Positions 15,941 through 50,613 of a stretch of DNA of 64,000 nucleotides are shown here, one piece after another. The notes beneath the pieces are model-generated. The model had not been told where the DNA came from, searched no databases, and worked only from the letters and a program-made list of their open reading frames with translations. The translations under genes and the position numbers were made by a program. Numbering within the stretch: the first letter of the stretch is position 1; each line of letters starts with the position of its first letter. The DNA is from Sipunculus nudus (lineage: Eukaryota; Annelida; Sipuncula; Golfingiida; Sipunculidae), in contig CM049313.1 of assembly GCA_026874595.1 (NCBI GenBank), positions 63,678,159-63,742,158 on the forward strand, in the 5' to 3' direction.

Positions 15941-17288
15941 CCCTCGACTGTTGGATCAGCACTTTTGGGCTTATTTTTATAAAAGCGTCAAGAGATTAAC
16001 TTTATTTAATGCGTTCAAGATATCGGGATGGACCCCCTTGATAATGTCTAAGGTACATGTTTAAAGGGACATTATCTATTCTTTTACACTATAAAATCAC
16101 TTTTGCTTTAAACAAAAGTTTCCAGGAAAACCATCCAAGCACATGGTCTCAGTACCTCCTTTTGAGCTGTTTAACACCTTATTATTGTTTTGTGTATTAG
16201 TAAACAAAGTCCAAGTGTGTCTGTTTACAATAACACGGCTGCATGACCAGAGGTCTGATTTTGCCCTTGCTTGACAAATCCAAAACAAAGAGTAGTCCAA
16301 ACTAGTCAATACATGGACCTTCATATCCTCTGATATATCTCTGCTGGATGGATGTTGGGTCCCAGGCCTGAGTCATTGGAACATGTGATGTATCAGACAG
16401 CAGGAACATTTTTGGGGCCAAGCCAGTCAGGGCATCTCCTGATTGACAGGTGTTGTGGCCCAGGTGGTGCACTGAGTCCCATGTGCTGTGTTTATGGACA
16501 CACTTGTGATCGCACCCTATTCACTGATTTTAACTCGCATGAACAGGAGTAAGCCAACAGTTTCAAGGCAATATTTTGGCAGGTTCCAATTTAAATAAAA
16601 AAGAAGGTGCTATTTTTCGTGTTTATTTAACATACTCAATAGGTGATTAGGCCCATTAAAGTTCCTTCCTGCCACACCATTTTGAGTGTGCATCGGCAAG
16701 GTTCTGCCACTCCTTGAGGTTTTAGTGATTGATATAGACTAATTGATGATTTCATGAACCACACTTTCATGAAATTTATACTGAGATCATTTTTTAAAGC
16801 TCACTTTAGAGTTCAGAAATGATATTTGTCCAGAGGGAATTGAAGCATGGGGATGGCAGACTAATGAGTAATGCGCCAATAGTACTACACTGCGGGTAGT
16901 GGTGACGGAGTAGAAGAGGGGCACTGGAACAAATACCTGATATTGGAAGCATTCTTTATGAGAGTCGTCATTTCTTCGCCCAACTTAATAATATAAAACA
17001 CAAGTTAATAGAAGTTATACATGGAAATAAGTGATTCTTCAACCGTGATCGTATCATGTGAAACCAGCTTCTCTATTATCGCCCCAAATGTCGTAAAATA
17101 TGTTTATTATTTTCTTTAAGATTCTATATTATCTTCTCAAGAGTGAGTGTATCGGTCAAGTGATACAGCCGAAGTAATACATTTTTCTTAACCAGTTATT
17201 CTAAATTGCAGTGAACCTGTGGTTTTACAATGGTCGTAAAGTGCCGTAAATAAGATCTATGCCGTAAGTCGGTAGGGCTTCACCGAGT
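15941..17288. other. Non-coding stretch
   Basis: No supported gene. The frames at 16097-16324 (minus) and 16352-16552 (plus) have no recognisable features. Confidence 0.5.
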
Positions 17289-17335
17289 TCAAGCTATCCG
17301 GACGTTGCGCCATCCGGAGGTAACATATCCGGACC
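17289..17335 (+). repeat. Left boundary motif of the satellite block (ATCCGGA repeats)
   Basis: TCAAGCTATCCGGA (17289-17302) is followed by CATCCGGAGGTAAC and ATATCCGGA, giving three ATCCGGA words in 45 bp. The complement of the first word appears twice at the right side of the block (35514 and 35581), with further TCCGGA words between. This makes a pair of inverted boundary sequences around the block. Confidence 0.65.
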
Positions 17336-17562
17336 CAGTTAGTTAACACAATATCCGCCAGAGGTCGCTACCGCTATGCTTACCAACAGGATGGACGTCG
17401 CAGGCAATGCCCATACACTTTGTGTGGTCCAACTGCACCAGAGACTGTGTCCTGATGTGACTTGATGATGGAAGTATGACGTCACACGTTAATAAAAAGA
17501 AAAAAAAAAGATATTTCAATAATAAATTAATTAAAGAGTGTTTTCCGTGATATATTGCGCTG
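17336..17562. other. Junction between boundary motif and satellite array
   Basis: Non-repetitive sequence, AT-rich at its right end (an A-rich run at 17497-17509). No gene. Confidence 0.5.
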
Positions 17563-18578
17563 GCCAAATGGAGGGTTTGTAACCTCTTATCTCAGTCTGT
17601 GACAACAAGCCATGCATGTCAATCCACTTTGAATCGTTTGGATTATCTATAACAATTATTTGCATGGCCGGGTTTCTCATTGGGTTCAAGGACCAAAACC
17701 GGGTTTTGTAGCTATACGTCTACATTCCTATATGGTGAAGGCCAAATTTAATGAAGGGTTTAAGTATCTCTTATCCCAGAGCCTGTGACAGCAAGACTTG
17801 GAGCGGTATGAGTTTTCTCTGCGTTGGTGTCTGACAGGGACCAAGGCCCCAAACCACGGTTCAAAGTGGAGCTATACCACAATCTTAATTCATTATATTG
17901 GCCAACCTGAGGCAAACGGGTATTCAAAATGGGGCTAGGCCTTTATATTAAATCATTATTTTGGCCAAATTGAGGGTTTTTATCTCTAATCACAAAGTCT
18001 GTGACAACAAGCCATGCATACCCACCATCTAAAAAAATAAATTTACGTTGGTGTCTGACGGGGTTCAGGGGCCAAAACGACGGTTCCAAGTGAGGCTATA
18101 CCTCTCTCTCAATTCAGCAACATGGTGATATCTCTAATCTTAGAGAATGTTACAATTACAGATGCATGTCACCTAACTGGGCGGGGATCGAACTATTCAG
18201 AACCAAATTTGCAATGTGCCCTGAACGGGATCAGGGGCCCAAATCAGGGTTCGAAATTGGGCTGTCCCTATATCATAATTCATTCTATTGGCCAACCTGA
18301 GGGTGTTTATCTCCAACCTCAGAGTCTGTGACAGTTAGGGATGCATGTTACCTGGCTTGGCGGGGCTCTAACTGTCTGACACCAAAATTGCAATGGCCTC
18401 TGACCGGGATAAGGGACCCAAAAAAGGGGTTAGAAATGGGGCTATACTTCTATTTAAACTCATTTTGTTGTCCAACCTGAGGGCGTTTATCTCTAATCTC
18501 GGAGTCTTTGACGGTTAAAGATGCATATGTCACCTGACTGGACGGAGCTCTAATTGTTTACGAGCAAATTTGCAATGG

Positions 18579-21500
18579 GCTCTGACCGAGATCAGGGGCC
18601 CAAATCAGGGTTCGAAACGGGGCTATACCTCTATCTAAACTCATTTTGTTGGCCAACCTCAGGGTGTCTATCTATAGTATCAGAGTCTGTAACAGTCAGC
18701 GATGCATGTAACCTGACTGGGCTCGGTTCCTCTGTCTGTTAGCAAATTGTAATGAGCCCTGGAAGGTTTCAGGTGCCCAAATCGGGTTTAGAAATGGAGT
18801 TACACCTCTACCTTTACTCATTATATTAGTCAACCTGATGGTCTATATCTCTAATCTCAGAGTCTGTGACAGTTAAAGATGCATGTCACCTTACTTGGCG
18901 CGGTTCCAGTTATCTACAAGGATATTTGCACAGGGCCCTGACCGGGTTGAAGGGCCCGAATCAGGGCTCAAAATGCGGCTATACCTCTAACATAACTCAT
19001 TATATTGGCCTACCTGAGGATGTTTATCTTTCATCTCAGAGTCTGTGACAGTTAGAGATGCATGTCGCCTGACTGGGCTCGGTTTCATCTGACTGTTATG
19101 AAATTTGCAATGGGCCCTGACCGGGTTCAGGGGTCCAAATCAGGGTTCGAAATGGGGCTAATCTTCTATCTAAACTCATTTTGTTGGCCAACCTGAGGGT
19201 GCTTATCTCTAACCTCAGAGTCTGTGACAGTTAAAGGTGAATGTCGTCTGACTGACAGCGGTTCCAGCTGTCTACAAGCACATTTTTACTGGGCCCTCAC
19301 TGGGTTGAAGGGCCCAAATCAGGGTTCAAAGTGTGGCTATACCTCTATCTTAACTCATTATGTTGACCTACCTGAGGATGTTTATCTCTAATCTCAGAGT
19401 CTGTAACAGTTAGAGATGCATGTCGCCTGACTGGGAGAGGCCTTATCTTAATGTCTGGAAATTTGCACTGGGCCCTGACCGGGTTCAGGGGACCAAATCA
19501 GGGTTCGAAATAGGGTAAAACCTCTATCCTAACTCATTAAATTGGCCAACCCGAGGGGGTTTATCTCTAATTTCAGAGTCTGTGACAGTTAGAGATGGAT
19601 GTAACCTGGATGGTCTGGGCTCTAACTATCTGCAAGCAAATTTGCAATGGGCTCCGACCGGGCTGAAGGGCCCGAATCAGGGCTCAAAATGCGGCTATAC
19701 CTTTATCTCATCTCATTATATTGGCCTACCTGAGGATGTTTATCTCTAATCTCAGAGTCTGTGACAGTTAGAGATGCATGTCGCCTGACTGGGCTCGGTT
19801 TCATCTGACTGTATGGAAATTTGCAATGGGCCCTGACCGGGTTCAGGGGTCCAAAACAGGGTTCGAAATGGGGCTATTCTGCTATCTAAACTTATTTTGT
19901 TGGCCAACCTGAGGTTGCTTATCTCTAACCTCAGAGTCTGTGACAGTTAAAGGTACATGTCGTCTGACTGACAGCGGTTCCAGCTGTCTACAAGCAAATT
20001 GTTATTGGGCCCTCACCTGGTTGAAAAGCCCAAATCAGGGTTTAAAATGTGGCTATACCTCTATCTTAACTCATTATATTGGCCTAACCTGAGGATGTTC
20101 ATCTCTAATCTCAGAGTCTGTGACAGTTAGAGATGCATGTCGCCTGACTGGGAGAGGTTTCAGCTGTCCACAAGCAAATTTGCACTGGGCCCTGACCGGG
20201 TTCTTGGACCCAAATCAGGGTTAGAAATGGGGTAAAACCTCTATCCTAACTCATAAAATTGGCCAAACCGAGGGTGTTTATTTCTGGTCTCAGAGTCTGT
20301 GACAGTTAGAGATGGATGTAACCTGGATGGGCTGGGCTCTAACTATCTGCAAGCAAATTTGCAATTTGCTCTGACCGAGATCAGGGACCCAAATCAGGGT
20401 TCGAAACGGGGCTATACCTCTATCTAAACTCATTTTGTTGGCCAACCTCAGGGTGTCTATCTATAGTATCAGAGTCTGTAACAGTCAGCGATGCATGTAA
20501 CCTGACTGGGCTCGGTTCCTCTGTCTGTTAGCAAATTGTAATGAGCCCTGGAAGGTTTCAGGTGCCCAAATCGGGTTTAGAAATGGAGTTACACCTCTAC
20601 CTTTACTCATTATATTAGTCAACCTGATGGTCTATATCTCTAATCTCAGAGTCTGTGACAGTTAAAGATGCATGTCACCTTACTTGGCGCGGTTCCAGTT
20701 ATCTACAAGGATATTTGCACAGGGCCCTGACCGGGTTGAAGGGCCCGAACCAGGGCTGAAAATGCGGCTATACCTCTAACATAACTCATTATATTGGCCT
20801 ACCTGAGGATGTTTATCTTTCATCTCAGAGTCTGTGACAGTTAGAGATGCATGTCGCCTGACTGGGCTCGGTTTCATCTGACTGTTATGAAATTTGCAAT
20901 GGGCCCTGACCGGGTTCAGGGGTCCAAATCAGGGTTCGAAATGGGGCTAATCTTCTATCTAAACTCATTTTGTTGGCCAACCTGAGGGTGCTTATCTCTA
21001 ACCTCAGAGTCTGTGACAGTTAAAGGTGAATGTCGTCTGACTGACAGCGGTTCCAGCTGTCTACAAGCACATTTTTACTGGGCCCTCACTGGGTTGAAGG
21101 GCCCAAATCAGGGTTCAAAGTGTGGCTATACCTCTATCTTAACTCATTATGTTGACCTACCTGAGGATGTTTATCTCTAATCTCAGAGTCTGTAACAGTT
21201 AGAGATGCATGTCGCCTGACTGGGAGAGGCCTTATCTTAATGTCTGGAAATTTGCACTGGGCCCTGACCGGGTTCAGGGGACCAAATCAGGGTTCGAAAT
21301 AGGGTAAAACCTCTATCCTAACTCATTAAATTGGCCAACCCGAGGGGGTTTATCTCTAATTTCAGAGTCTGTGACAGTTAGAGATGGATGTAACCTGGAT
21401 GGTCTGGGCTCTAACTATCTGCAAGCAAATTTGCAATGGGCTCCGACCGGGCTGAAGGGCCCGAATCAGGGCTCAAAATGCGGCTATACCTTTATCTCAT

Positions 21501-23945
21501 CTCATTATATTGGCCTACCTGAGGATGTTTATCTCTAATCTCAGAGTCTGTGACAGTTAGAGATGCATGTCGCCTGACTGGGCTCGGTTTCATCTGACTG
21601 TATGGAAATTTGCAATGGGCCCTGACCGGGTTCAGGGGTCCAAAACAGGGTTCGAAATGGGGCTATTCTGCTATCTAAACTTATTTTGTTGGCCAACCTG
21701 AGGTTGCTTATCTCTAACCTCAGAGTCTGTGACAGTTAAAGGTACATGTCGTCTGACTGAGATCGGTTCCAGCTGTCTACAAGCAAATTGTTATTGGGTC
21801 CTCACCTGGTTGAAAAGCCCAAATCAGGGTTTAAAATGTGGCTATACCTCTATCTTAACTCATTATATTGGCCTAACCTGAGGATGTTTATCTCTAATCT
21901 CAGAGTCTGTGACAGTTAGAGATGCATGTCGCCTGACTGGGAGAGGTTTCAGCTGTCCACAAGCAAATTTGCACTGGGCCCTGACCGGGTTCTTGGACCC
22001 AAATCAGGGTTAGAAATGGGGTAAAACCTCTATCCTAACTCATAAAATTGGCCAAACCGAGGGTGTTTATTTCTGGTCTCAGAGTCTGTGACAGTTAGAG
22101 ATGGATGTAACCTGGATGGGCTGGGCTCTAACTATCTGCAAGCAAATTTGCAATTTGCTCTGACCGAGATCAGGGACCCAAATCAGGGTTCGAAACGGGG
22201 CTATACCTCTATCTAAACTCATTTTGTTGGCCAACCTCAGGGTGTCTATCTATAGTATCAGAGTCTGTAACAGTCAGCGATGCATGTAACCTGACTGGGC
22301 TCGGTTCCTCTGTCTGTTAGCAAATTGTAATGAGCCCTGGAAGGTTTCAGGTGCCCAAATCGGGTTTAGAAATGGAGTTACACCTCTACCTTTACTCATT
22401 ATATTAGTCAACCTGATGGTCTATATCTCTAATCTCAGAGTCTGTGACAGTTAAAGATGCATGTCACCTTACTTGGCGCGGTTCCAGTTATCTACAAGGA
22501 TATTTGCACAGGGCCCTGACCGGGTTGAAGGGCCCGAACCAGGGCTGAAAATGCGGCTATACCTCTAACATAACTCATTATATTGGCCTACCTGAGGATG
22601 TTTATCTTTCATCTCAGAGTCTGTGACAGTTAGAGATGCATGTCGCCTGACTGGGCTCGGTTTCATCTGACTGTTATGAAATTTGCAATGGGCCCTGACC
22701 GGGTTCAGGGGTCCAAATCAGGGTTCGAAATGGGGCTAATCTTCTATCTAAACTCATTTTGTTGGCCAACCTGAGGGTGCTTATCTCTAACCTCAGAGTC
22801 TGTGACAGTTAAAGGTGAATGTCGTCTGACTGACAGCGGTTCCAGCTGTCTACAAGCACATTTTTACTGGGCCCTCACTGGGTTGAAGGGCCCAAATCAG
22901 GGTTCAAAGTGTGGCTATACCTCTATCTTAACTCATTATGTTGACCTACCTGAGGATGTTTATCTCTAATCTCAGAGTCTGTAACAGTTAGAGATGCATG
23001 TCGCCTGACTGGGAGAGGCCTTATCTTAATGTCTGGAAATTTGCACTGGGCCCTGACCGGGTTCAGGGGACCAAATCAGGGTTCGAAATAGGGTAAAACC
23101 TCTATCCTAACTCATTAAATTGGCCAACCCGAGGGGGTTTATCTCTAATTTCAGAGTCTGTGACAGTTAGAGATGGATGTAACCTGGATGGTCTGGGCTC
23201 TAACTATCTGCAAGCAAATTTGCAATGGGCTCCGACCGGGCTGAAGGGCCCGAATCAGGGCTCAAAATGCGGCTATACCTTTATCTCATCTCATTATATT
23301 GGCCTACCTGAGGATGTTTATCTCTAATCTCAGAGTCTGTGACAGTTAGAGATGCATGTCGCCTGACTGGGCTCGGTTTCATCTGACTGTATGGAAATTT
23401 GCAATGGGCCCTGACCGGGTTCAGGGGTCCAAAACAGGGTTCGAAATGGGGCTATTCTGCTATCTAAACTTATTTTGTTGGCCAACCTGAGGTTGCTTAT
23501 CTCTAACCTCAGAGTCTGTGACAGTTAAAGGTACATGTCGTCTGACTGAGATCGGTTCCAGCTGTCTACAAGCAAATTGTTATTGGGCCCTCACCTGGTT
23601 GAAAAGCCCAAATCAGGGTTTAAAATGTGGCTATACCTCTATCTTAACTCATTATATTGGCCTAACCTGAGGATGTTTATCTCTAATCTCAGAGTCTGTG
23701 ACAGTTAGAGATGCATGTCGCCTGACTGGGAGAGGTTTCAGCTGTCCACAAGCAAATTTGCACTGGGCCCTGACCGGGTTCTTGGACCCAAATCAGGGTT
23801 AGAAATGGGGTAAAACCTCTATCCTAACTCATAAAATTGGCCAAACCGAGGGTGTTTATTTCTAGTCTCAGAGTCTGTGACAGTTAGAGATGGATGTAAC
23901 CTGGATGGGCTGGGCTCTAACTATCTGCAAGCAAATTTGCAATTT
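18579..23945 (+). repeat. Higher-order repeat: three 1789-bp units of ten monomers
   Basis: The units run 18579-20367, 20368-22156 and 22157-23945. GGGTGTCTATCTATAGTATC, a variant found in only one monomer per unit, starts at 18662, 20451 and 22240, exactly 1789 apart. Units 2 and 3 share changes that unit 1 lacks (for example CCCGAACCAGGGCTGAAAATG against CCCGAATCAGGGCTCAAAATG), so the latest duplication made units 2 and 3. Similarity to the pattern stops at 23946. Confidence 0.92.
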
Positions 23946-25314
23946 GCCCTGACCGGGTTCAGCGGCCAAAATCAGGGTACGAAATGCGGTTATACCTCTA
24001 TCTAAACTCATTTTGTTGGCCAACCTCAGGGTGTCTATCTCTAATACCAAAGTCTGTGACAGTTAGAGATGTATGCCACCTGACTGGGCGGGGCTCTAAC
24101 TGTCCTCAAGCAAATTTGCAATGGGCTCCGACCGGGTTGAATGACCCGAATCAGGGCTCAAAATGCGGCTATACCTCTATCACAACTCATTATATTGGCC
24201 TACCTGAGGATGTTTATCTCTAATCTCAGAGTCTGTGACAGTAAGAGATGCATGTCGCCTGACTGGGCTCGGTTTTATCTGACTGTTTGGAAATTTGCAA
24301 TGGGCCCTGACCGGGTTCAGCGATCCAAATCAGGGTTCGAAATGGGGCTATTCTTCTATCTAAAGTCATTTTGTTGGCCAACCTGAGGGTGCTTATCTCT
24401 AATCTCAGAGTCTGTGACAGTTAAAGGTGAATGTCGTCCGACTCCGATCGGTTTAAGCTGTCTACAAGCAAATTTTTATTTGGCCCTCACCGGGTTGAAA
24501 AGCCCAAATCAGGGTTCAAAATGTGGCTATACCTCTATCTTAACTCATTATATTGGCATACGTGAGGATGTTTATTTCTAATCTCAGAGTCTGTGACAGT
24601 TAGAGATGCATGTCGCCTGACTGGGAGAGGTTCCAGCTGTCTACAAGCAAATTTGCACTGGGCTCTGACCGGATTTAGAGGCCCAAATCAGGGTTAGAAA
24701 TGGGGTAAAACATCTATCCTAACTCATTAAATTGGCCAACCCGAGGGTGTTTATCTCCAATCTCATAGTCTGTGACAGTTAGAGATGGATGTAACCTGGC
24801 TGGGCTGGGCTCTAACTATCTGCAAGCAAAATTACAATTTGCCCTGACCGGGTTCAGCGGCCAAAATCAGGGTATGAAATGGGGTTATACTTCTATCTAA
24901 ACTCATTTTGTTGGCCAACCTGAGGGTGTCTATCTCTAATCTCAGAGTCTGTGACAGTTAAAGGTGCATCTCTTCTGACTGAGAGTGGTTCCAGCTGTCT
25001 ACAAGCAAATTTTTACTGGGCCCTCACAGGGTTCAAGGGCCCAAATCAGGGTTCAAAATGTGGCTATACCTCTATCTTAACTCATTATATTGGCCTACCT
25101 GAGGATGTTTATTTCTAATCTCAGAGTCTGTGACAGTTAGAGATGCATGTCACCTGACTGGGAGAGGTTTCAGCTGTCTACAAGCAAATTTGCACTGGGC
25201 CCTGACCGGGTTCTTGGACCCAAATCAGGGTTAGAAATGGGGTAAAATCTCTATCCTAACTCTTTAAATTGGCCAAACCGAGGGTGTTTATCTCTAATCT
25301 CAGAGTCTGTGACA

Positions 25315-26875
25315 GTAAGAGATGCATGTTGCCTGACTGGGCTTGGTTTCATCTGACTGTATGGAAATTTGCAATGGGCCCTGACCGGGTTCAGGGGTCC
25401 AAATCATGGTTCGAAATGGGGCTATTCTTATATCTAAAGTCATTTTGTTGGCCAACCTGAGGGTGCTTATCTCTAATCTCAGAGTCTGTGACAGTTAAAG
25501 GTGAATGTCGTCTGACTGACAGCGGTTCCAGCTGTCTACAAGCAAATTTTTATTGGGCCCTCACCTGGTTGAAAAGCCCAAATCAGGGTTCAAAATGTGG
25601 CTATACCTCTATCTTAACTCATTATATTGGCATACGTGAGGATGTTTATCTCTAATCTCAGAGTCTGTGACAGTTAGAGATGCATGTCACCTGACTGGGA
25701 GAGGTTTCAGCTGTCTACAAGCAAATTTGCACTGGGCCCTGACCGGGTTCTTGGACCCAAATCAGGGTTAGAAATGGGGTAAAACCTCTATCCTAACTCT
25801 TTAAATTGGCCAAACCGAGGGTGTTTATCTCTAATCTCAGAGTCTGTGACAGTTAGAGATGGATGTAACCTGGATGGGCTGGGCTCTAACTATCTGCAAG
25901 CAAAATTGCAATTTGCCCTGACCGGGTTCAGGGGCCAAAATCAGGGTACAAAATGGGGTTATACCTCTATCTAAACTCATTTTGTTGGCCAACCTGAGGG
26001 TGTCTATCTCTAATACCAAAGTCTGTGACAGTCAGAGATATATGCCACCTGACTGGGCAGGGCTTTAACTGTCCTCAAGCAAATTTGCAATGGGTTCCGG
26101 CCGGGTTGAATGACCCGAATCAGGGCTCAAAATGCGGCTATACCTCTATCTCAACTCATTATATTGGCCTACCTGCGGATGTTTATCTCTAATCTCAGAG
26201 TCTGTGACAGTAAGAGATGCATGTTGCCTGACTGGGCTCGGTTTCATCTGACTGTATGGAAATTTGCAATGGGCCCTGACCGGGTTCAGGGGTCCAAATC
26301 AGGGTTCGAAATGGGGCTATTCTTTTATCTAAAGTCATTTTGTTGGCCAACCTGAGGGTGCTTATCTCTAATCTCAGAGTCTGTGACAGTTAAAGGTGAA
26401 TGTCGTCTGACTGACAGCGGTTCCAGCTGTCTACAAGCAAATTTTTATTGGGCCCTCACCTGGTTGAAAAGCCCAAATCAGGGTTCAAAATGTGGCTATA
26501 CCTCTATCTTAACTCATTATATTGGCATACGTGAGGATGTTTATCTCTAATCTCAGAGTCTGTGACAGTTAGAGATGCATGTCACCTGACTGGGAGAGGT
26601 TTCAGCTGTCTACAAGCAAATTTGCACTGGGCCCTGACCGGGTTCTTGGACCCAAATCAGGGTTAGAAATGGGGTAAAACCTCTATCCTAACTCTTTAAA
26701 TTGGCCAAACCGAGGGTGTTTATCTCTAATCTCAGAGTCTGTGACAGTTAGAGATGGATGTAACCTGGATGGGCTGGGCTCTAACTATCTGCAAGCAAAA
26801 TTGCAATTTGCCCTGACCGGGTTCAGGGGCCAAAATCAGGGTACAAAATGGGGTTATACCTCTATCTAAAGTCAT
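25315..26875 (+). repeat. Second higher-order repeat, 895-bp (five-monomer) period
   Basis: GTAAGAGATGCATGTTGCC starts at 25315 and 26210, and the 670 bp after each are almost the same (through ACAAAATGGGGTTATACC). A further variant, AAAGGTGCATCTC..TGACTGAGAGTGG, recurs at 24960 and 26929 (11 monomers apart). The array therefore grew by duplication of several different block sizes. Confidence 0.8.
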
Positions 26876-28359
26876 TTTGTTGGCCAACCTGAGGGTGCTT
26901 ATCTCTAATCTCAGAGTCTGTGACAGTTAAAGGTGCATCTCGTCTGACTGAGAGTGGTTCCAGCTGTCTACAAGAAAATTTTTACTAGGCCCTCACTGGG
27001 TTCAAGGGCCCAAATCAGGGTTCAAAATGTGGCTATACCTCTATCTTAACTCATTATATTGGCATACGTGAGGATGTTTATTTCTAATCTCAGAGTCTGT
27101 GACAGTTAGAGATGCATGTCACCTGACTGGGAGAGGTTTCAGCTGTCTACAAGCAAATTTGCACTGGGCCCTGACCGGGTTCTTGGACCCAAATCAGTGT
27201 TAGAAATGGGGTAAAACCTCTATCCTAACTCTTTAAATTGGCCAAACCGAGGATGTTTATCTCTAATCTTAGAGTCTGTGACAGTTAGAGATGGATGTAA
27301 CCTGGATGGGCTGGGCTCTAACTATCTGCAAGCAAAATTGCAATTTGCCCTGACCGGGTTCAGGGGCCAAAATCAGGGTACGAAATGCGGTTATACCTCT
27401 ATCTAAACTCATTTTGTTGGCCATCCTGAGGGTGTCTATCTCTTATACCAAAGTCTGTGACAGTTAGAGATGTATGCCACCTGACTGGGCGGGGCTCTAA
27501 CTGTCCTCAAGCAATGAGCTCCGGCCGGGTTGAATGACCCGAATCAAGGCTCAAAATGCGGCTATACCTCTATCTCAACTCATTATATTGGCCTGTCTGA
27601 GGATGTTTATCTCTAATCTCAGAGTCTGTGACAGTTAGAGATGCATGTCGCCTAACTGGGCTCGGTTTCATCTGACTGTTTGGAAATTTGCAATGGGCCC
27701 TGACCGGGTTCAGGGGTCCAAATCAGGGTTGGAAATGGGGCTATTCTTCTATCTAAACTCCTTTTGTTGGCCAACCTGAGGTTGCTTATTTCTAATCTCA
27801 GAGTCTTTGACAATTAAAAGTGCATGTCGTCTGACTGAGAGCGGTTCCAGATGTCTACAAGCAAATTTTTACTGGGCCCTCACCGGGCTCAAGGGCCCAA
27901 ATTAGCGTTCAAAATGTGGCTATACCTCTATCTTAACTCATTATATTGGCCTACCTGAGGATGTTTATCTCTAATCTCAGAGTCTGAGACAGTTAGAGAT
28001 GCATGTCGCTGACTTGGAGAGGTTCCAGCTGTCTACAAGCAAATTTGCACTGTGCGGGGCTCTAACTGCCCTCAAGCAAATTTGCAATGGGCTCTGACCG
28101 GGTTGAAGGGCCCGAATCATGGCTCAAAATGCGGCTATACCTCCATGTGAACTCCTTATATTTGCCTACCTGAGGATATTTAACTCTAATCTCAGAGTCT
28201 GTGACAGTTAGAGATTCATGTCGTCTGACTGGGCTCGGTTTCATCTGACTGTTTGGAAATTTGCAATGGGCCCTGACCGGGTTCAGAGGTCCTAATCAGG
28301 GTTCGAAATTGGGCCATTCTTCTATCTAAACTCATTTTGTTGGCCAACCTGAGGGTGCT

Positions 28360-28382
28360 TATATATATATATATATATATAT
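28360..28382. repeat. (AT)n tract ending the plus-oriented satellite array
   Basis: The last monomer stops in GAGGGTGCTT and turns directly into (AT)11. It marks the inner breakpoint of the array. Confidence 0.9.
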
Positions 28383-28743
28383 CCGACGAAAGCAACGAGT
28401 TGTTCATCTCTGTTAAATTACTGGCCGGGGCGCTGAAATTTCCTGCTACAGTACAAATTTATTGGAAATATTTAGAACGGAAATCGACAGTGTTTTATGT
28501 AAATACGGGAATGGATGATTCCTTCACTTGATCGTGCTGCTGTCCTAGGCTGACATATGACCTTTTTCATAATTCTGGGGGTTTTTTGTGTTATTTTGCA
28601 GGTAAAATATCCTTTTGTTAACCAATATGTATGGGCTTGAGAAACACTGACATAATTTCGCGGGATCAAACTCATCAAGCGGGGTGATAAAATAATGAGA
28701 AATTCTCAAACCTTGTTTTCTAAGGGAGATGCCTAAAAATTCC

Positions 28744-28766
28744 GGGGGGGGGGGGGGGGGGGGGGG
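28744..28766. repeat. Poly-G tract
   Basis: 23 consecutive G, the longest uninterrupted G run in the window. Confidence 0.95.
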
Positions 28767-29122
28767 CTTATTACGTTATTACAATCCATGGTGTTGTAAA
28801 CTTCAAGCAGTGTTTGATCATTGCACCTATGAAAGTAGAATTGAAGGAATGAAAGTATAATTATAGGTCGGTTTATATATGTCAATCTGCTCTTGTCCAC
28901 TCTGACCATTTTTCACACAAGCCCAATTCTGTGGCCATGGTGATGACAGTTAAATTTTTGTAATTTATTAATAATTAGAATTATAGACTGATTACATTTC
29001 TTAATTTACTATGAAATGTTATATGTCTAAAACTGGTTTATAATTAACTTATCCTTGAAATATATCAAATAACTTATTTTTAAATGTTATACTTCATTGT
29101 AAATTCTTTGAAAGGTGTCACA

Positions 29123-29128
<6 letters not shown>

Positions 29129-29176
<48 letters not shown>
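29129..29176. repeat. (TA)n microsatellite
   Basis: About 24 TA dinucleotides. Confidence 0.95.
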
Positions 29177-29180
<4 letters not shown>

Positions 29181-30879
29181 TTGTCCAAACTTTGATTACC
29201 CTCCAATTTCTACGAGTTGTCCTCCACCCTTGAAGAAAAAAATTGACGTCACTGATAATACTCAAATAGTCTTTCTAAATTAGTTACATCAGGCTGTTGG
29301 ATGCCAGAATGTGTCCTCTTTACCAGGGTCTAGTTTGGAATTACAGTGTCCCCTAACTGATGGACATTCAGATCTATGAAATGTATTGACTGTCCATATA
29401 CTTACTATGCTTTAGCACAATAGACCTTTATAAGGACCTGCTTGAAACGAATAACACGATTGATAGTTTTCACTGACAACTTAAGTATAGCGTTCCTCCT
29501 TAGAGGTGTTGTTTACAAGACCCCTGTACCCTCCACATCATTCACAATTTGACCTCTGTCACCATAAGGTGAGAGGCAAGTGTCTCAGCTAAGGGTTATA
29601 TCTGCACTGACTGAAATAAAGCAACGTGTGTGATAGCTGCTGTGTAGTTTTAAAATGCTTTTACTGACTGAACACAAAGAACACCTGCATGGAAAACTCC
29701 TGTTTAACTGTTCAATATATTTGAGATAATTTTATGTTGTGCAATTAGTTAACAGTGATTTCTTTAAAAATACTGCAAATATGAATGAAGTGCAAGACTG
29801 ATGTATTGATTATTTTTTTAAAGACGGACTAGATCAACAAAACCATGATGGTTGGAAGCACTTCATTTGAACAAGTATGCACTGATTACCATCAGGACGT
29901 TAACGTTATCACATAATTTGTATTCATATCCAGGGTAAGACATGATTGCATATTATTGTATTTTGAAATGCATTTTGTCGAAGCGTGCAGACTAGGATTT
30001 AGCATATAGTATTCTTTACATTATATTGTCATCAACAGTGATGAATGACTTAAGTTCAGTCTAGAGTATTATTTTTCCACGGACTTCCGTTTTTTTTTTT
30101 TTTGTTTCGATTATGCCAATTAACCATTCTGACTATAATTAAAGATTTTATAATAATAACTAATATCAAAATATTTTAGTATCTGTTTGAAACATAGTGT
30201 CATTATGGAGTGTTTTTATTATAGTAAACTTTTGATTTTTACAGATTTCCTATAATAAAAGTGTGTTATCACTATAAGATTTTTTGAATGTTTATTACTG
30301 AAGGAAGACAAAACATTAATAAACCTTACATTTTGTCATAATAATACTTGAATATTCACCAATCAACGCCACCCGTCTCCCCCCCCCCCCCAAACTTTTA
30401 AAAAAGGGGGTGGCACAGACGGCCCAAGAAGTTTTACAATTAATCTGACTCTGGATATACTGGTATCAGCCATCATGCAGATATAAATCGACGAGCATTG
30501 TCTATAGGTGTTGCAAACGTATGCTATATTAGTTTTCAGTGTGCCAGTAAGAAGTACTTTTATCCCACCCCACATAATGTGTGTAGCCTGGTTCTTGATA
30601 AATGTGCATACTTTAACAAACCTGATCCCTCCCAGTCATCAAACACCTCAGATCATAGATAACTTAATCATAACTTGACAAGACGGGCCAGCCATCAGTG
30701 TGTAACTGTTATTCTCAACACATATACCCTTACTGGGAGAGGGTCAAAATGGTTACATACCAGAGCTGAGTATCAATTTGTAACGCTGTCACTGAACCTC
30801 CAGCAGCACTGACCTCCCCCATTATGTTAACAATCAGTATCCAGTGTCATGGACCAAACTAACTGTTTAAGATGGACGA

Positions 30880-33800
30880 TTCAGACCATTCCGAACCCTT
30901 ACTGGCCCCTGAACCCGGTCAGTGCCCATAGCAAATTTGCTTAGTGACAGATGGAACCGAGCCTAGTCAAGTGACATGCATCTCTAACTGTCACAGACTC
31001 TGATGCTAGAGATAGACACCCTCAGGCTGGTCAACAAAATGATTTAAGAAAGAGGTATAGCCCCATTTCGAACCCTGATTTTTTTCCTCTAAACCCGGTC
31101 AAAGCCAATTGCTAATTTGCTTGTAGACAGCTGGAACCGAGCCCAGTCAGGTGACATGCATCTTTATCTGTCACAGACTCTGAGTTTAGAGATAAATACC
31201 CTCAGGTTGGCCAATTTAATCAGTTAAGATAGAGGTATAGCCACATTTCCGTCCCTGATTTGGGCACCTGAGCCCGGTCAGGGTACATTGAAAATTTACT
31301 TGAAGACAGTTGAAGGCCAGCCCAGTCAGGTGACATGCATCTCTAACTGTCACAGACTCTGTGATTAGAGATAAACACCCTCAGGTTGGCCAATTTAATC
31401 AGTTAAAAGGTGGTATAGCCACATTTCGGACCCTAATTTGGGCACGTGAGCCCAGTCAGGGCCCATTGAAACTTTGCTTGCAGACAGTTGAAGGCCCGCC
31501 TAGTCAGGTGACATGCATCTCATACTGTCACAGACTCTGAGTTTAGAGATAAATACCCTCAGGTCGGCCAATTTTATCAGTTAAGATAGAGGATTAGCCA
31601 CATTTCGGACCCTGATTTGGGCATCTGAGCTCGGTCAGGACCCATTGCAAATTTGCATGCAGACAGTTGAAGGCCCGCCCAGTCAGGTGACACGCATCTC
31701 TAACTGTCACAGACTCTGTGATTAGAGATAAACACCCTCAGGTCGGCCAATTTTATCAGTTAAGAAAGAGATATAGCCACATTTCGGACCTTGATTTGGG
31801 CACCCGAGCCCGGTCAGGGAGAATTGCAAATTTGCTTGCAGGTAGTTGAAGGCCAGCCCAGTCAGGTGACATGCATCTATAACTGTCACAGACTCTGTGA
31901 TTAGAGATAAATATACCCTCAGGTTGGAAAATTTTATCAGTTAAGATAGAGGTATAGCCTCATTTCGGACCCTGATTTGGGCACCTGAGCCCGGTCAATG
32001 AGAATTGCAAATTTGCTTGCAGATAGTTGAAGGCCCGCCCAGTCAGGTGACATGCATCTATAACTGTCACAGACTCTGTGATTAGAGATAAATACCCTCA
32101 GGTTGGCCAATTTATTCAGTTAAAAGGGGTATAGCAACATTTCAGACCCTGATTTGGGCACCTGAGCCCAGTCAGGGCCCATTGCAAATTTGCTTGTTGA
32201 CAGTTGAAGGCCCACCCAGTCAGGTGACATGCATCTATAACTGTCACAGACTCTGTGATTAGAGATAAACACCCTCAGGTTGGCCAATTTAATCAGTTAA
32301 AGGTGGGTATAGCTACATTTCGGACCCTGATTTGGGCACCTGAGCCAAGTCAGGGCCCATTGCTAATTTGCTTGAAGACAGATGAAGGCCCGCCCAGTCA
32401 GGTGACATGTATCTCATACTGTCACAGACTCTGAGTTTAGAGATAAATACCCTCAGGTTGGAATAATTTTATCAGTTAAGATAGAGGTATAGCCACATTT
32501 CCGACCCTGATTTGGGCACATGAGCCCGGTCAGGGTCCATTGCAAATTTACTTGCTGACAGTTGAAGGCCCGCCCAGTCAGGTGACATGGATCTCTAACT
32601 GTCACAGACTCTGTGATTAGAGATAAACACCCTCAGGTTGGAAAATTTTATCAGTTAAGATATAGGTATAGCCACATTTCCGACCCTGATTTGGGCACCT
32701 GAGCCCGGTCAGGGTCCATTGCAAATTTACTTGAAGACAGTTGAAGGCCAGCCCAGTCAGGTGACATGCATCTCTAACTGTCACAGACTCTGTGATTAGA
32801 GATAAACACCCTCAGGTTGGCCAATTTAATTAGTTAAAGGTGGGTATAGCCACATTTCGGACCCTGATTTGGGCACCTGAGCCCGGTCAGGGCCCATTGC
32901 TTATTTGCTTGCAGACAGTTGAAGGCCCGCCTAGTCAGTTGACATCCATCTATATCTGTCACAGACTCTGATTTTAGAGATAAACACCCTCAGGTTGGAA
33001 AATTTTATCAGTTAAGATATAGGTATAGCCACATTTCAGACCCTGATTTGGGCACCTGAGCCCGGTAAGGGAGAATTGCAAATTTGCTTGCTGACAGTTG
33101 AAGGCCCGCCCAGTCAGGTGACATGGATCTCTAACTGTCACAGACTCTGTGATTAGAGATAAACACCCTCAGGTTGGAAAATTTTATCAGTTAAGATATA
33201 GGTATAGCCACATTTCGGACCCTGATTTGGGCACCTGAGCCCAGTCAGGGCCCATTGCAACTTTGCCTGCAGACAGTTGAAGGCCCGCCAAGACAGGTGA
33301 CATGCATCTCTAACTGTCACAGACTCTGTGATTAGAGATAAACACCCTCAGGTTGCCCAATTTTATGAGTTAAGATAGAGGTATAGCCACATTTCGGACC
33401 CTGATTTGGGCACCTGAGCCCGGTAGGGGAGAATTGAAATTTGCTTGCTGACAGTTGAAGGCCCGCCCAGTCAGGTGACATGCATCTATAACTCTCACAG
33501 ACTCTGTGATTAGAGATAAACACCCTCAGGTTGGCCAATTTAATCAGTTAAGATATAGGTATAGCTACATTTCGGACCCTGATTTGGGCACCTGAGGTCG
33601 GTCAGGGCCCATTGCAACTTTGCCTGCAGACAGTTGAAGGCACGCCCAGACAGGTGACATGCATCTCTAACTGTCACAGACTCTGTGATTAGAGATAAAC
33701 ATTCTCAGGTTGGCCAATTTTATCAGTTAAGATAGATGTATAGCCACATTTCGGACCCTGATTTGGGCACCTGAGCCCGGTCAGGGAGAATTGCAAATTT

Positions 33801-35440
33801 GCTTACTGATAGTTGAAGGCCCGCCAGGTCAGGTGACATGCATCTCTAACTGTCACAGACTCTGTGATTAGAGATAAACACCCTCAGATTGGCCAATTTA
33901 ATCAGTTAAAAGGTGGTATAGCCACATTTCGGACCCTCATTTGGTCACCCGAGCCCAGTCAGGGCCCATTGCAACTTTGCTTGCAGACAGTTGAAGGCCA
34001 CCCAGTCAGGTGACATGCATCTCATACTGTCATAGACTCTGAGTTTAGAGATAAATACCCTCAGGTTGGAAAATTTTATGAGTTAAGAAAGAGATATAGC
34101 CACATTTCGGACCTTGATTTGGGCACCCGAGCCCGGTCAGGGAGAATTGCAAATTTGCTTGCAGGCAGTTGAAGGCCCGCCCAGTCAGGTGACATGCATC
34201 TATAACTGTCACAGACTCTGTGATTAGAGATAAACACCCTCAGGTTGGCCAATTTAATCAGTTAAGATAGAGGATTAGCTACATTTCGGACCCTGATTTG
34301 GGCACCTGAGCCCGGTCAGGGAGAATTGCACATTTGCTTGCTGACAGTTGAAGGCCCGCCCAGTCAGGTGACATGTATCTCATACTGTCACAGACTCTGA
34401 GTTTAGAGATAAACACCCTCAGGTTGGAATAATTTTATCAGTTTAGATAGATTTATAGCCACATTTCCGACCCTGATTTGGGCACCTGAGCCCGGTCAGA
34501 GTCCATTGCAAATTTACTTGAAGACAGTTGAAGGCCAGCCCAGTCAGGTGACATGCATCTCTAACTGTCACAGACTCTGTGGTTAGAGATAAACACCCTC
34601 AGGTTTGCCAATTTAATCAGTTAAAGGTGGATATAGCCACATTTCGGACCCTGATTTGGGCACCTGAGCCCGGTCAGGGCCCATTGTTAATTTGCTTGCA
34701 GACAGTTGAAGGCCCGCCTAGTCAGTTAACATCCATCTATATCTGTCACAGACTCTGAGTTTAGAGATAAATACCCTCAGGTTGGCCAATTTTATCAGTT
34801 AAGATAGAGGTATAGCCACATTTCGGACCTTGATTTGGGCACCTGAGCCCGGTCAGGGCCCATTGCAAATTTGCTTGCAGACAAATGAAGGCCCGCCCAG
34901 TCAGGCATCATGCATCTATAAGTGTCACAGACTCTGTGATTAGAGATAAATACCCTCAGGTTGGCCAATGTAATCAGTTAAAAGGGGATTAAGCTCAATT
35001 TCGGACCCTGTTATAGGCCCCTGAGCCAGGTCAGGGCCCATTGCAAATTTGCTTGCAGACAGTTGAAACCCAGGCAAGTGCAGTCGGGTGATTAAGGAAT
35101 CTCTTATTCATAGATCCTGGACTTGAGATTAAAGATAAAAACTCTCAAGATGACTTACATAATGAATTAAGATATAGGTATAACCGTATATATAGCCCCA
35201 TTTTGACCCCGTTTTGGGCCGGGTGCCTTTACCCCGTGAGAAACCTATGCAAAAAATGTTCATAGAAAATTTAATTTTCTGCAAGTGATATGCATGGCTT
35301 GCTGTAACAGACTCTGATATAAGAGATACAAATCCTCCTCCACATGGGCAACACATTGTATGAATACAGACGCGGAGGTAAAGTTCCATTTTGAACCCTG
35401 GTTTGAGTGCTTGAACCCGGTAAGAGACCCATTTAAATAA
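30880..35440 (-). repeat. Satellite array, about 25 monomers of 179 bp, inverted relative to the first array
   Basis: The landmark AGACTCTGTG recurs at 31711, 31890, 32071 and 32248 (177-181 apart). Read on the minus strand, monomers match the first array in order of blocks, but belong to a distinct subfamily: AACTGATAAAATTGGCC instead of AACTCATTATATTGGCC, GGGCGGGCCTTCAACTGTC, and ATCACAGAGTCTGTGACAG. The outermost monomers (35080-35440) are degenerate, like the outer edge of the other array. Three-monomer similarity is visible (GGTGACATGG at 32581 and 33117), but there is no long higher-order unit. Confidence 0.96.
31696..31729. other. Dyad-symmetric core of a satellite monomer (representative)
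   Basis: ATCTCTAA, three bases, TCACAGA, one base, TCTGTGA, TTAGAGAT: two nested inverted repeats giving 15 paired bases around a one-base centre. The same segment is in most monomers of the inverted array. The plus array keeps the outer arms (ATCTCTAA..TTAGAGAT) with a shorter inner dyad (CAGAGTCTG). Confidence 0.85.
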
Positions 35441-35513
35441 TATTTATAATCCATATATCTTCATTATTTGTTTATGAATTTATTACAGCTGAAATACTGA
35501 TGTCACGGCTGTC

Positions 35514-35640
35514 TCCGGATAGCTTGAGTCCTGATGACCTTCCGGTGACCTCCGGATGGAATTCCCTCCGGATAGCTTCGTCCGGATAGCTTGAGCATGG
35601 TTAGGGCTTCAGCTCGGTGAGGGTTATTCCGCACCCAGTC
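35514..35640 (-). repeat. Right boundary motif of the satellite block (TCCGGA repeats)
   Basis: TCCGGATAGCTTGA at 35514-35527 and 35581-35594 is the exact complement of the left boundary word at 17289-17302; TCCGGATGGAATTCCC and TCCGGATAGCTTCG lie between. TAGGGCTTCA, also found next to the left motif, follows at 35602. The outer part, GAGGGTTATTCCGC to ATTCCTC (35617-35653), recurs in inverted form near 54515-54550, so this boundary sequence is also dispersed. Confidence 0.65.
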
Positions 35641-35733
35641 AGGCTGATTCCTCCATTTACCGTTAGATGTCGGTAATAAAGCAAGGCAATTGTCTATTAA
35701 CCCTATGGGAATCCATTTGCACTGGTGTGACCT

Positions 35734-48579: not shown

Positions 48580-50613
48580 ATACATATACATGTCACAGTA
48601 CATAAAAAATGTATTTTTTTATCAAATATTGTGGTTCAGTTTTCTGACTAATATCAGTATGTAAGAATACCGACATAAACCTGATAACGCCACAATGAAA
48701 GTATGTATATTGTGGTTATATAGATATGACAATTATACATTTAGTAACTGATTAAAGCATTATCATTGCTTAATATTGTCCTTTAAATACAGAAAATATA
48801 TGTCTAGTCCACAATAGAAGTAAAAATTCAAGGTTTTCTAATTTGTAACTGCTTAAAGCTTTTTCTTTTTTGAATATTGTACTTTAAATACAGAAAATAT
48901 ATGTGTGGTCCACAATAGAAGCGAGGTTTCCCATTTTGTAGTTTGGGCACATTGATATAAATTTTCAAAGATTATTAGGGGTAGGTTTACTGAGATATGA
49001 ACAAAACCACACCCCTCCAGGCAAATGCTTTCCTTGCCCCTAACCCAAAACAAGAACTCCGAATAATATTACACTCCATCCAGCCCCCAACCCTCCCTCA
49101 GAATATCAGATCAGTGTTATGGATTATATATACGGTAATTTTGGGAGTACCTGTGGGTCATTTGTTTGTCTATATCTTACAGTTATAAGATATTTTGTTG
49201 ATTCTCAGTGACGCATTTCCTTTTTAAAATTCAAGTGATCTGATCCTGAGGTTTAAGAGACAAAAGAAACTGACCAGGAAGGCGCTGGATAGCTTACTCA
49301 GCTCCAGGATGGAGCACCTTCACCTGGACGGGGCATACGTAACTGAAGGAATGATCAAGCTAGTGGCCACCAGGTGTCCTCAGCTGAGGGTCCTCAACCT
49401 CTGTGACTGTGGATATGTCATTACTGATCATCTCATGGAAGAACTACTCAAGGTACGAAGGAAATCTTATAAAAAGCTTGCGTCTCATAGATAAAGATAA
49501 ATGTACAGATGATAAACAAACATAACTGGCCCAGATCTTCTTTCACTAAGGTTGAATTATTTTTCATTCCACTGTCTGATCATGTTAGAAATTAGTTCCA
49601 GACATGATTATAAGTAATGGCTACAACCCTCTGTCTGGAATGAATCGGACGCCTGCTCTGTCTGACCAGAATACTGTCTGTCAGTTAAATCAGTGTTATA
49701 CTCTGCTATACAGGCACTGACTGGCCAAAAGGAAAATTAAATTTTCTGTAATAACAAAACTCTGCTGATTTTGATCCACATGATGGTGGTGTCTCATAAA
49801 ACTCAGCGCCGCTAAACATTATGTGTGGAATCATCATCAGTGCGGTGTTACTCAGTAAAAAAATTAATCTAAAATAATCATAATTTGACCATACCCATTA
49901 GCAGTTAACCTAAAACAATGATACAAAACTCTTCTGAGGCCAATGTTCTAAAATTCGTGCACCAACTTGGCCCATTTGACTGTGATAGCTCTAGTTTCTA
50001 TACATCAAAGTGAATGTGGGGGGGGGGGGGGGGGGGGAACTACATCGGCCCTGTTGAACATTTGGTTACATATTCTAATAACCTGTTGCGGTTGAACATC
50101 CCACTTACAATTTATTTACTAAGTATTGTTGGAAATGTTCTTGGGGAAAAGTAGACTTTTTTTTTTAATTTCTGAATTTGAGTCATGTTATGGACAAGCC
50201 CATTTAATTAATCAAATTAATGCACCTTTGGTATCCACATTTACATCAAGGTTGTACATTTTTTATTCTCTTTCCAGGAAATCTCCACCATAGAGAGCTT
50301 GAACCTGAAAAACTGCGTCCATCTGACAGACAGAACACTAAATGCGCTGTGTAAAAATGCACCCAATCTCACGCGGCTCGACCTGACCGGGGTTTATTCT
50401 GTCACACAAACAGGCATATTGAACTTAGTTATCCAGTGTCAGCAGCTGAAGATGTTAGACATATATAGCAATAAGAACATAGGTGAGGAGGGAAAGGAGG
50501 CGCTGGTCCAGATCGCTCGCACAAGAGGCATGACTGTGGTACTGAAGGGGCTCGCAGAGGAAGGAGGGGCCCCTGTAGATCCGCAGGCAGCATTCTTCCA
50601 GCGATCGTATTAA
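46217..50613 (+). CDS. AMN1-like leucine-rich-repeat protein
   Basis: Firm exons: 48300-48415, 49236-49452 and 50278-50613 (stop 50611-50613), with AG/GT borders and matching phases (AG+T = Ser; then phase 0). The protein has RLLDSCLAYISNNITKYD at its start, like the LLDLCL opening of AMN1, then cysteine-type LRRs: MEHLHLDGAYVTEGMI, CPQLRVLNLCDCGYVITDH, IESLNLKNCVHLTDRTLNAL, APNLTRLDLTG and QLKMLDIYSNKNIGEEG; the tail ends in QRSY. About 220 residues are visible, slightly shorter than human AMN1 (258). AMN1 and FBXL proteins share this repeat type; the lack of an F-box and the short N-terminus favour AMN1-like. In the first firm exon a stop lies just upstream in frame (48288-48290), so another 5' exon is needed. 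A candidate is 46217-46251 (ATG.. encoding MTFASRRRRRN + 2 bases, donor AACAG|GTTTCA), which fits an alternative acceptor GGCAG at 48319; this part is weak. Human AMN1 function is inferred from yeast Amn1 (mitotic exit control). Confidence 0.8.
48421..48540. repeat. Perfect tandem duplication of 60 bp beside a splice donor
   Basis: 48421-48480 and 48481-48540 are identical base for base. The first copy starts five bases after the donor of the AMN1-like exon. Each unit has an inverted repeat, GTGATAAA..TTTATCAC, and ends in (TA)n, which continues to 48576 after the second copy. Identity implies a very recent event or an assembly artefact. Confidence 0.95.
50018..50037. repeat. Poly-G tract in an intron
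   Basis: About 20 G in the last identified intron of the AMN1-like gene. Confidence 0.95.

What the first reader, a model, noticed from the sequence alone, without database searches (positions are those of the whole stretch)
17289..35640. Giant inverted arrangement of two 179-bp satellite arrays
A plus-oriented array (17563-28359) and a minus-oriented array (30880-35440) of the same satellite face each other across a 2.5-kb spacer, with inverted boundary motifs outside both. This reads as an 18-kb inverted repeat: either an ancient inverted duplication of a satellite locus, the inside of a large mobile element, or two contig ends joined at a repeat. The subfamilies have diverged (AACTCATTATATTGG against AACTGATAAAATTGG), so the arms have been homogenised separately and the structure is not a simple recent fold-back artefact.
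Basis: partly seen in the sequence, partly recalled or inferred. Interest (0 to 1): 0.75.

Follow-up and report, generated by a model that had tools for sequence, protein, structure and literature searches.

The report
Foldback transposon with satellite-DNA arms
The two facing satellite arrays are the arms of one 18-kb mobile DNA element that has inserted at many places in its genome, so it shows how a transposon can carry and seed long satellite arrays.

Summary
The window holds one complete non-autonomous DNA transposon, 17282-35601 (18,320 bp), flanked by a perfect 9-bp target-site duplication, TAGGGCTTC, at 17273-17281 and 35602-35610. Its ends are short inverted repeats with TCCGGA motifs about 15 bp apart; its arms are the opposed 179-bp arrays, its loop the 2.5-kb spacer. 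The genome (1.43 Gb) holds 16 closely related loci by end sequence, this one included, 13 with both ends. Of 14 copies whose two end junctions I read (those 13 and one old relative; 2.6-58.1 kb), 13 have a perfect 9-bp duplication, all different, and one has 8 of 9. The spacer is 93-96% identical in the eight longest other matches. Left-arm and right-arm repeats are two subfamilies shared by the eight loci compared (398 of 399 best cross-locus matches), so the arms diverged before the element spread. The longest arms contain copy-specific recent duplications. It works like a foldback element (Tetris is the closest described). No transposase was found. Inverted duplication and assembly join are rejected.

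The parts
17273..17281 (.). left target-site duplication TAGGGCTTC
   Evidence: this 9-mer occurs twice in the 64-kb window, here and at 35602, and not on the other strand
17282..17304 (+). left terminal inverted repeat ACCGAGTTCAAGCTATCCGGACG
17297..17333 (+). three subterminal TCCGGA motifs (end positions 16, 32, 47), candidate transposase sites
   Evidence: 0 TCCGGA in 76,093 bp of six element interiors; 3 in 45,680 bp of window flanks
17282..17593 (+). left end domain
   Evidence: (query 17273-17560): 15 close matches in the genome, this one included (87-100%)
17594..28366 (+). left arm: 179-bp satellite array, plus orientation; outermost monomers (to about 18142) degenerate
18557..23968 (+). 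recent higher-order amplification in the left arm, unit 1789 bp (10 monomers), about 3 copies
   Evidence: 3622 bp at 99.5% at lag 1789
28194..28201 (+). empty site AGAGTCTG where copies C4, C9 and C16 carry a nested 2.3-kb hAT-like element with this 8-bp duplication
28383..30850 (+). core (loop) of the element, longest stop-to-stop frame 90 aa; 28367-28382 is an AT run
   Evidence: long matches at 93-96% in eight other loci, pieces in four more
30851..35438 (-). right arm: satellite array of the second subfamily, minus orientation
35439..35601 (-). right end domain with inverted terminus ACCATGCTCAAGCTATCCGGACG and four TCCGGA motifs
   Evidence: 14 close matches in the genome, this one included (96-100%)
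35602..35610 (.). right target-site duplication TAGGGCTTC

Best explanation
The feature is one copy of a non-autonomous foldback-type DNA transposon. Shown: it has defined ends, 9-bp target-site duplications and a family of related copies, and its two arms are opposed arrays of two long-separated subfamilies of one 179-bp satellite around a core without a long reading frame. Inferred: a transposase made elsewhere binds the TCCGGA motifs repeated about every 15 bp at each end, cuts out the whole unit and pastes it with a 9-bp stagger; I think a Mutator/Foldback-type enzyme most likely (about 0.55). Inferred from sequence: the arrays grow and shrink by unequal exchange in their middles, probably after insertion, while the monomers next to the ends and the core stay fixed. 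The element therefore seeds ready-made satellite arrays at new places. The confidence given is for the mobile unit and its anatomy, not for the enzyme class.
For: Target-site duplications: perfect 9 bp in 13 of 14 copies with both junctions read, 8 of 9 in the other, all different. Ends: 15 close left and 14 close right ends in the genome, the window's included, 13 loci with both, facing inward. Exact paired-motif pattern: 26 matches, all at the 16 loci, reversed control 0. Core: long matches at 93-96% in eight other loci, pieces at 85-97% in four more; 1.8-4.4% substitutions among 9 cores. A 2.3-kb hAT-like insertion with 8-bp duplication AGAGTCTG sits at the same internal site in C4, C9 and C16, which have different target duplications, so the composite moved as a unit. 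Arm subfamilies shared across eight loci, 398 of 399. In six copies identity falls from the ends inward, 97 to 80% left and 98 to 85% right. The three longest of 15 arms examined hold kilobase duplications at about 99%. TCCGGA sits at fixed end positions and in 0 of 76,093 bp of interiors.
Against: No transposase is apparent in the window copy's core, and none of 131 MULE, 9 KDZ or 110 chromosomal IS1595/Merlin-type matches lies within 97 kb of any of 61 end-like motifs, so the mobilising enzyme is unknown. The left and right ends match each other only over short stretches, not as one long terminal repeat. Copy C10a lacks a right end; C3 and C4b each show one good end. Copy C5 has no core. Of the 14 copies, seven were read only at their junctions plus scattered parts; the 58-kb one includes a LINE and the hAT-like element. 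Array lengths rest on the assembly.
Confidence: 0.95

Rival explanations
1. Ancient inverted duplication of a satellite locus, the arms later diverging.
For: Opposed arrays of one satellite; three short inverted matches exist between the two flanks.
Against: Those three matches (81-219 bp) are kilobases from the ends and not collinear, so they look like dispersed repeats. A 9-bp target-site duplication abuts both ends. 13 other copies with both junctions read have different duplications.
Confidence: 0.01
2. Assembly join of two contigs at a repeat, or a fold-back read artefact.
For: Arrays are hard to assemble and no reads were available here.
Against: 13 loci on ten contigs have both ends facing inward. 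Arm subfamilies differ and agree between loci. Array length in any one copy, such as the 1789-bp triplication, could still be misassembled.
Confidence: 0.02
3. Two separate satellite-bearing elements (for example Helentron/HINE type) that happened to insert face to face.
For: Satellite arrays of 140-180 bp inside Helentrons are common in the Pacific oyster (PMC7492417, passages).
Against: The paired structure with one shared core recurs. The outer ends carry 9-bp duplications, while Helitrons make none (PMC7492417, passages).
Confidence: 0.01
4. It is a transposon, but the enzyme is not Mutator/Foldback-like; another superfamily with a 9-bp stagger moves it. (Not exclusive of the best explanation, which leaves the enzyme open.)
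For: None of the 131 listed MULE matches lies within 0.55 Mb of the 61 end-like motifs.
Against: A 9-bp duplication with composite, internally repeated ends is described for Mutator/Foldback Tm1, and a 9-bp duplication with a minisatellite for Rehavkus (PMC3169594 and PMC6446971, passages). The MULE search scored 150 of 252 candidates, so a partner may have been missed.
Confidence: 0.4

Closest known systems
Tetris, foldback transposon of Drosophila virilis and D. americana (PMC4079207, passages read)
   Same: Non-autonomous; outer flanking domain, then tandem repeats of satellite size (about 220 bp) in each arm, an inner domain and a variable middle; 8-10 bp duplications; satellite-like arrays of up to 66 repeats, and by fibre-FISH long arrays flanked by two end domains; transposase not found.
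   Different: Host, and size: arms up to 1.7 kb in the sequenced Tetris copies, arms of 9-12.6 kb and a 58-kb copy here. Here the two arms hold separate subfamilies. No sequence comparison with Tetris was run.
Tm1, Mutator/Foldback family of root-knot nematodes (PMC3169594, passages)
   Same: Mostly 9-bp duplications; composite ends with a repeated motif of about 14 bp; the two ends of a copy differ in length.
   Different: Short motif repeats only, no satellite arms in the passages read; some Tm1 members encode a transposase.
Rehavkus, MULE-related (PMC6446971, passages)
   Same: 9-bp duplication; tandem repeat near one end.
   Different: Encodes a transposase with a PHD finger; minisatellite before the 3' end only; reported in arthropods and annelids.
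Galileo, P superfamily, foldback-like (PMC3688188, passages)
   Same: Long, internally repetitive arms with several transposase-binding sites.
   Different: P-type transposase; 7-bp duplications (recalled).
Oyster Helentron/HINE elements (PMC7492417, passages)
   Same: Carry satellite-like arrays with 140-180-bp monomers.
   Different: Rolling-circle type, no duplication, array between two modules, 3' palindrome.

Membership tests
Foldback-type DNA transposon | inverted arms built of internal tandem repeats | tested here: met
   arms align inverted at 79% over 4.2 kb
Foldback-type DNA transposon | short target-site duplication at insertion | tested here: met
   13 of 14 copies perfect 9 bp, 1 with 8 of 9
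Foldback-type DNA transposon | non-repeated middle between the arms | tested here: met
   core homology in the window and 12 other loci; absent in C5 and L040
Foldback-type DNA transposon | named transposase of the class (NOF or MULE) in the family | tested here: inconclusive
   none apparent in the window core; 0 of 131 MULE matches within 0.55 Mb of 61 end-like motifs, but only 150 of 252 candidates were scored; no NOF model was searched
Mutator (MULE) superfamily | 8-11 bp duplication | tested here: met
   9 bp; range from PMC6446971 passages
Mutator (MULE) superfamily | MULE-domain transposase with matching ends | tested here: inconclusive
   no link found
Tetris | sequence homology to Tetris end domain or TIR-220 | not tested
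   no Tetris element sequence was compared
Rehavkus | PHD-finger transposase | not tested
   no Rehavkus model was searched; the window core has no frame over 90 aa
Helitron/Helentron | no target-site duplication | tested here: not met
   9-bp duplications at 14 of 14 copies, 13 perfect and 1 with 8 of 9
hAT or P superfamily | duplication of 8 bp (hAT) or 7-8 bp (P), lengths recalled | tested here: not met
   one search lists 9 as the only exact length in its six perfect copies

The most novel reading that the evidence does not exclude
A clan of foldback transposons shares one set of ends, and thus one enzyme, but carries different satellites: the 179-bp family here, a roughly 198/194-bp one in the pair at C16:61.42-61.44 Mb (similar end pairs, unsampled, at C16:61.50 and C9:22.4 Mb), and a 37-bp one at C12:28.36 Mb. 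Such elements would work as interchangeable vehicles that birth, diversify and scatter satellite arrays, with the fixed divergence of the two arms kept because perfectly matching arms would be unstable.
Probability: 0.35. Interest if true: 0.72.

Novelty: new variant of a known kind. Interest (0 to 1): 0.58.

Why it matters
How satellite arrays arise and reach many chromosome sites is a long-standing question. This family gives independent insertions of one composite element, each with exact ends, fixed array edges and array middles that turn over, so growth and homogenisation can be measured copy by copy. The two arm subfamilies also give an internal test: they share an element and can sit within a few kilobases or even abut, yet keep apart. 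Copies span 2.6 to 58.1 kb, which asks how large a unit the enzyme can move and how much growth follows insertion.

Tried and rejected
Inverted duplication of a wider locus: self-comparison of the window with arrays masked (E 1e-4) shows three inverted matches between the two flanks, 7316-7526/41146-41343, 6511-6591/52906-52987 and 14765-14910/55531-55678; they are not collinear and do not adjoin the ends, so I take them as dispersed repeats. A transposase in the spacer: frames up to 90 aa only. A transposase in the 6-kb insert of the C16 core: it is a LINE, RVT_1 at 8.3e-22. An internal coding segment in the 2.3-kb gap of C4, C9 and C16: it is a nested hAT-like element; C1 has a partial related stretch. 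RNA families: no Rfam match at gathering thresholds; no tRNA in the window. Autonomous partner through MULE, KDZ and IS1595/Merlin families: no match near any end (MULE and IS1595 scored 150 of 252 and 150 of 209 candidates); the P-type search did not complete. Origin of the satellite from the ends or core: one chance-level match, E 0.014. Higher-order structure by megablast was mostly uninformative and was replaced by lag identity. The host was not identified.

Full report
What is there. The window has a plus-oriented array of a 179-bp satellite (17594-28366) and a minus-oriented array (30851-35438), separated by a 2.5-kb spacer. Of 83 near-full monomers (59 left, 24 right; shorter hits dropped), mean identity is 76.9% within the left arm, 82.3% within the right and 74.6% between.

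The key junction. The plus-strand 9-mer TAGGGCTTC occurs twice in the 64-kb window and not on the other strand: at 17273-17281 and 35602-35610. Immediately inside lie inverted ends, ACCGAGTTCAAGCTATCCGGACG on the left and ACCATGCTCAAGCTATCCGGACG read inward from the right, with 20 of the first 25 bases equal. Some shared 9-mer between 801-bp flanks is expected (1861 of 2000 shuffles, 4871 of 5000 real region pairs), but none of the 2000 or 5000 had one abutting ends this similar (best 16 of 25). The flanks next to the ends are not inverted copies of each other; three inverted matches of 81-219 bp between the two flanks lie kilobases away and are not collinear. This is the mark of one inserted unit, 17282-35601.

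The family. The window lies on contig C8 of a 1.43-Gb genome in 153 contigs; its species is not given and I did not identify it. The left end domain has 15 close matches (87-100%, the window's included; 23 rows, all 22 candidates scored) and 8 more diverged rows. The right end domain has 14 close matches (96-100%) among 25 rows. Together these are 16 loci, 13 with both ends in inverted order, on ten contigs. An exact pattern of two end motifs gives 26 matches, all at these 16 loci, and 0 for the reversed control. The spacer has long matches at 93-96% in eight other loci and pieces of 270-815 bases at 85-97% in four more; weaker rows (72-82%) mostly hit one dispersed repeat within it, and 40 of 1703 candidates were scored. 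Among 9 long cores substitutions are 1.8-4.4%, mean 3.2%.

Target-site duplications. I read both outer junctions of 14 copies. Perfect 9-bp duplications: window TAGGGCTTC, C1 TATTGAAGC, C9 CACCAAGCC, C4 AGGACGGGC, C8a TCATAGGCT, C5 ATCCGCGAT, the old short relative at C3:20.2 Mb CGTTTGAAG, C7 CGCCAATGT, C10b GTCAGTGTA, C10c GAACATTAC, C12 CTTTGCCTG, C15 AGAAGTTTC, C16 CGGTGTGAC. C8b has 8 of 9. So 13 of 14 are perfect and all differ. The seven were read at the junctions, their interiors only in part. Not complete: C10a has no right end; C3:32.88 Mb showed only a left end and C4b only a good right end.

Anatomy and variation. Copies run from 2,551 bp (old relative with about ten monomer matches, partly of unclear orientation, and no core) to 58,093 bp (C16; read only at its ends and from 19280001 to 19310000, and containing a LINE and a hAT-like element). 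Copy C5 lacks the core and its arms abut. In six copies read through, TCCGGA sits at end positions 16, 30-32 and 46-47 (one of these is changed in the left ends of C4 and C8a) and again at 83-84 on the right; it is absent from 76,093 bp of the six interiors and occurs 3 times in 45,680 bp of window flanks. A hAT-like element of about 2.3 kb with duplication AGAGTCTG lies at the same place in the last left-arm monomer of C4, C9 and C16; the window keeps the empty site, and C1 has a partial related stretch. Since C4, C9 and C16 have different target duplications, arms, core and nested insert travelled together.

How the arrays evolve. Across 399 monomers of 8 loci (partial hits dropped; C5 right arm and parts of C16 not included), the best match in another locus is on the same arm for 398; the overall best match is in the same locus for 222. 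The arm split is therefore a property of the element and older than its spread. Among six copies compared at equal distance from the ends, identity is about 97% in the first 700 bases of the left side and 80-81% at 1,500-2,300; on the right it falls from 98% to 85% by 1,700. Array middles turn over while edges stay. Of 15 arms examined (three cut by the fetched stretch), the three longest show long recent duplications, each with its own period: window left 1789 bp, C9 right 2838 and 1067 bp, C16 right 5004 and 1252 bp, at about 99% or more; in the other 12 no such stretch exceeds 0.83 kb. The window duplication (99.5%) is younger than its core's split from the nearest sampled copy (2.4%). That favours growth in place, but an unsampled closer source copy could also explain it.

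Mechanism. Shown: a mobile unit with exact ends and a 9-bp stagger, with no long reading frame in the window core. Inferred: a transposase supplied in trans, probably Mutator/Foldback-like because of the 9-bp duplication and the short repeats at the ends, which resemble Tm1 (PMC3169594, passages); binding of several sites in long repetitive arms has a precedent in Galileo (PMC3688188, passages). Against: none of 131 MULE matches is within 0.55 Mb of any of 61 end-like motifs, and the KDZ (9) and chromosomal IS1595/Merlin (110) matches are no closer than 97 kb; the MULE search scored 150 of 252 candidates.

A wider clan. Allowing two mismatches in the terminal 21-base pattern gives 61 matches against 5 for the reversed control. 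They include inverted pairs of a second type at C16:61.42, C16:61.50 and C9:22.44 Mb, 9.7-14.8 kb apart. Four 300-bp samples of the first pair show other tandem repeats, about 198 bp in two samples and 194 bp in a third, with a 32-bp inverted match between them; the fourth sample has none. A diverged left end at C12:28.36 Mb is followed by a 37-bp array. The duplications of the second type could not be read.

Known or new. Tetris of Drosophila virilis is the closest described element: tandem repeats of about 220 bp inside foldback arms, 8-10 bp duplications, long arrays between end domains seen by fibre-FISH, no transposase found (PMC4079207, passages). Six full-text searches, judged by the listed titles and abstract starts, showed no satellite-armed foldback element of this size or from a mollusc; the listings were capped and cover one open-licence library only. 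I file this as a new foldback family, a variant by its arm-specific subfamilies, its size range and the sharing of ends among different satellites.

Noticed in passing
G000 C16:61422788-61437592, C16:61500533-61510258, C9:22444076-22458545: Inverted pairs of similar ends (ACCGAGTTCAAGCTATCCGTA facing ACCGGGCTCAAGCTATCCGCA, one base different on C9); samples of the first hold other tandem repeats of about 198 and 194 bp.
   Followed up: partly
L041 (C12:28360001-28365000): A diverged left end followed by a 37-bp tandem array of about 20 units instead of the 179-bp satellite.
   Followed up: partly
G000 C16:19280001-19310000 (L035-L037): Core interrupted by a LINE with reverse transcriptase and a weak endonuclease match, flanked by a repeat of core bases 115-886.
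   Followed up: partly
G000, many contigs: A MULE family: 39 rows at the same 47.6 bits, 34 of them with an open 607-aa frame; it looks recently active and is not linked to this element.
   Followed up: no
G000 C11:73184655, 73195738, 73206785: Three right-end-like sequences in direct orientation at about 11.05-kb spacing: probably an 11-kb tandem duplication.
   Followed up: no
G000 contigs C101-C138: Small contigs hold 40 of the 150 IS1595-type transposase matches, many with intact frames and equal scores; perhaps a symbiont, contaminant or unusual replicon.
   Followed up: no
35618-35653 and 54517-54552: A 36-bp 92% inverted match just outside the right duplication, perhaps a short dispersed repeat at the insertion site.
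   Followed up: no
50221-50613: Leucine-rich-repeat frame with a weak match to F-box/LRR FBXL18, E 0.0024, below the cut-off.
   Followed up: no
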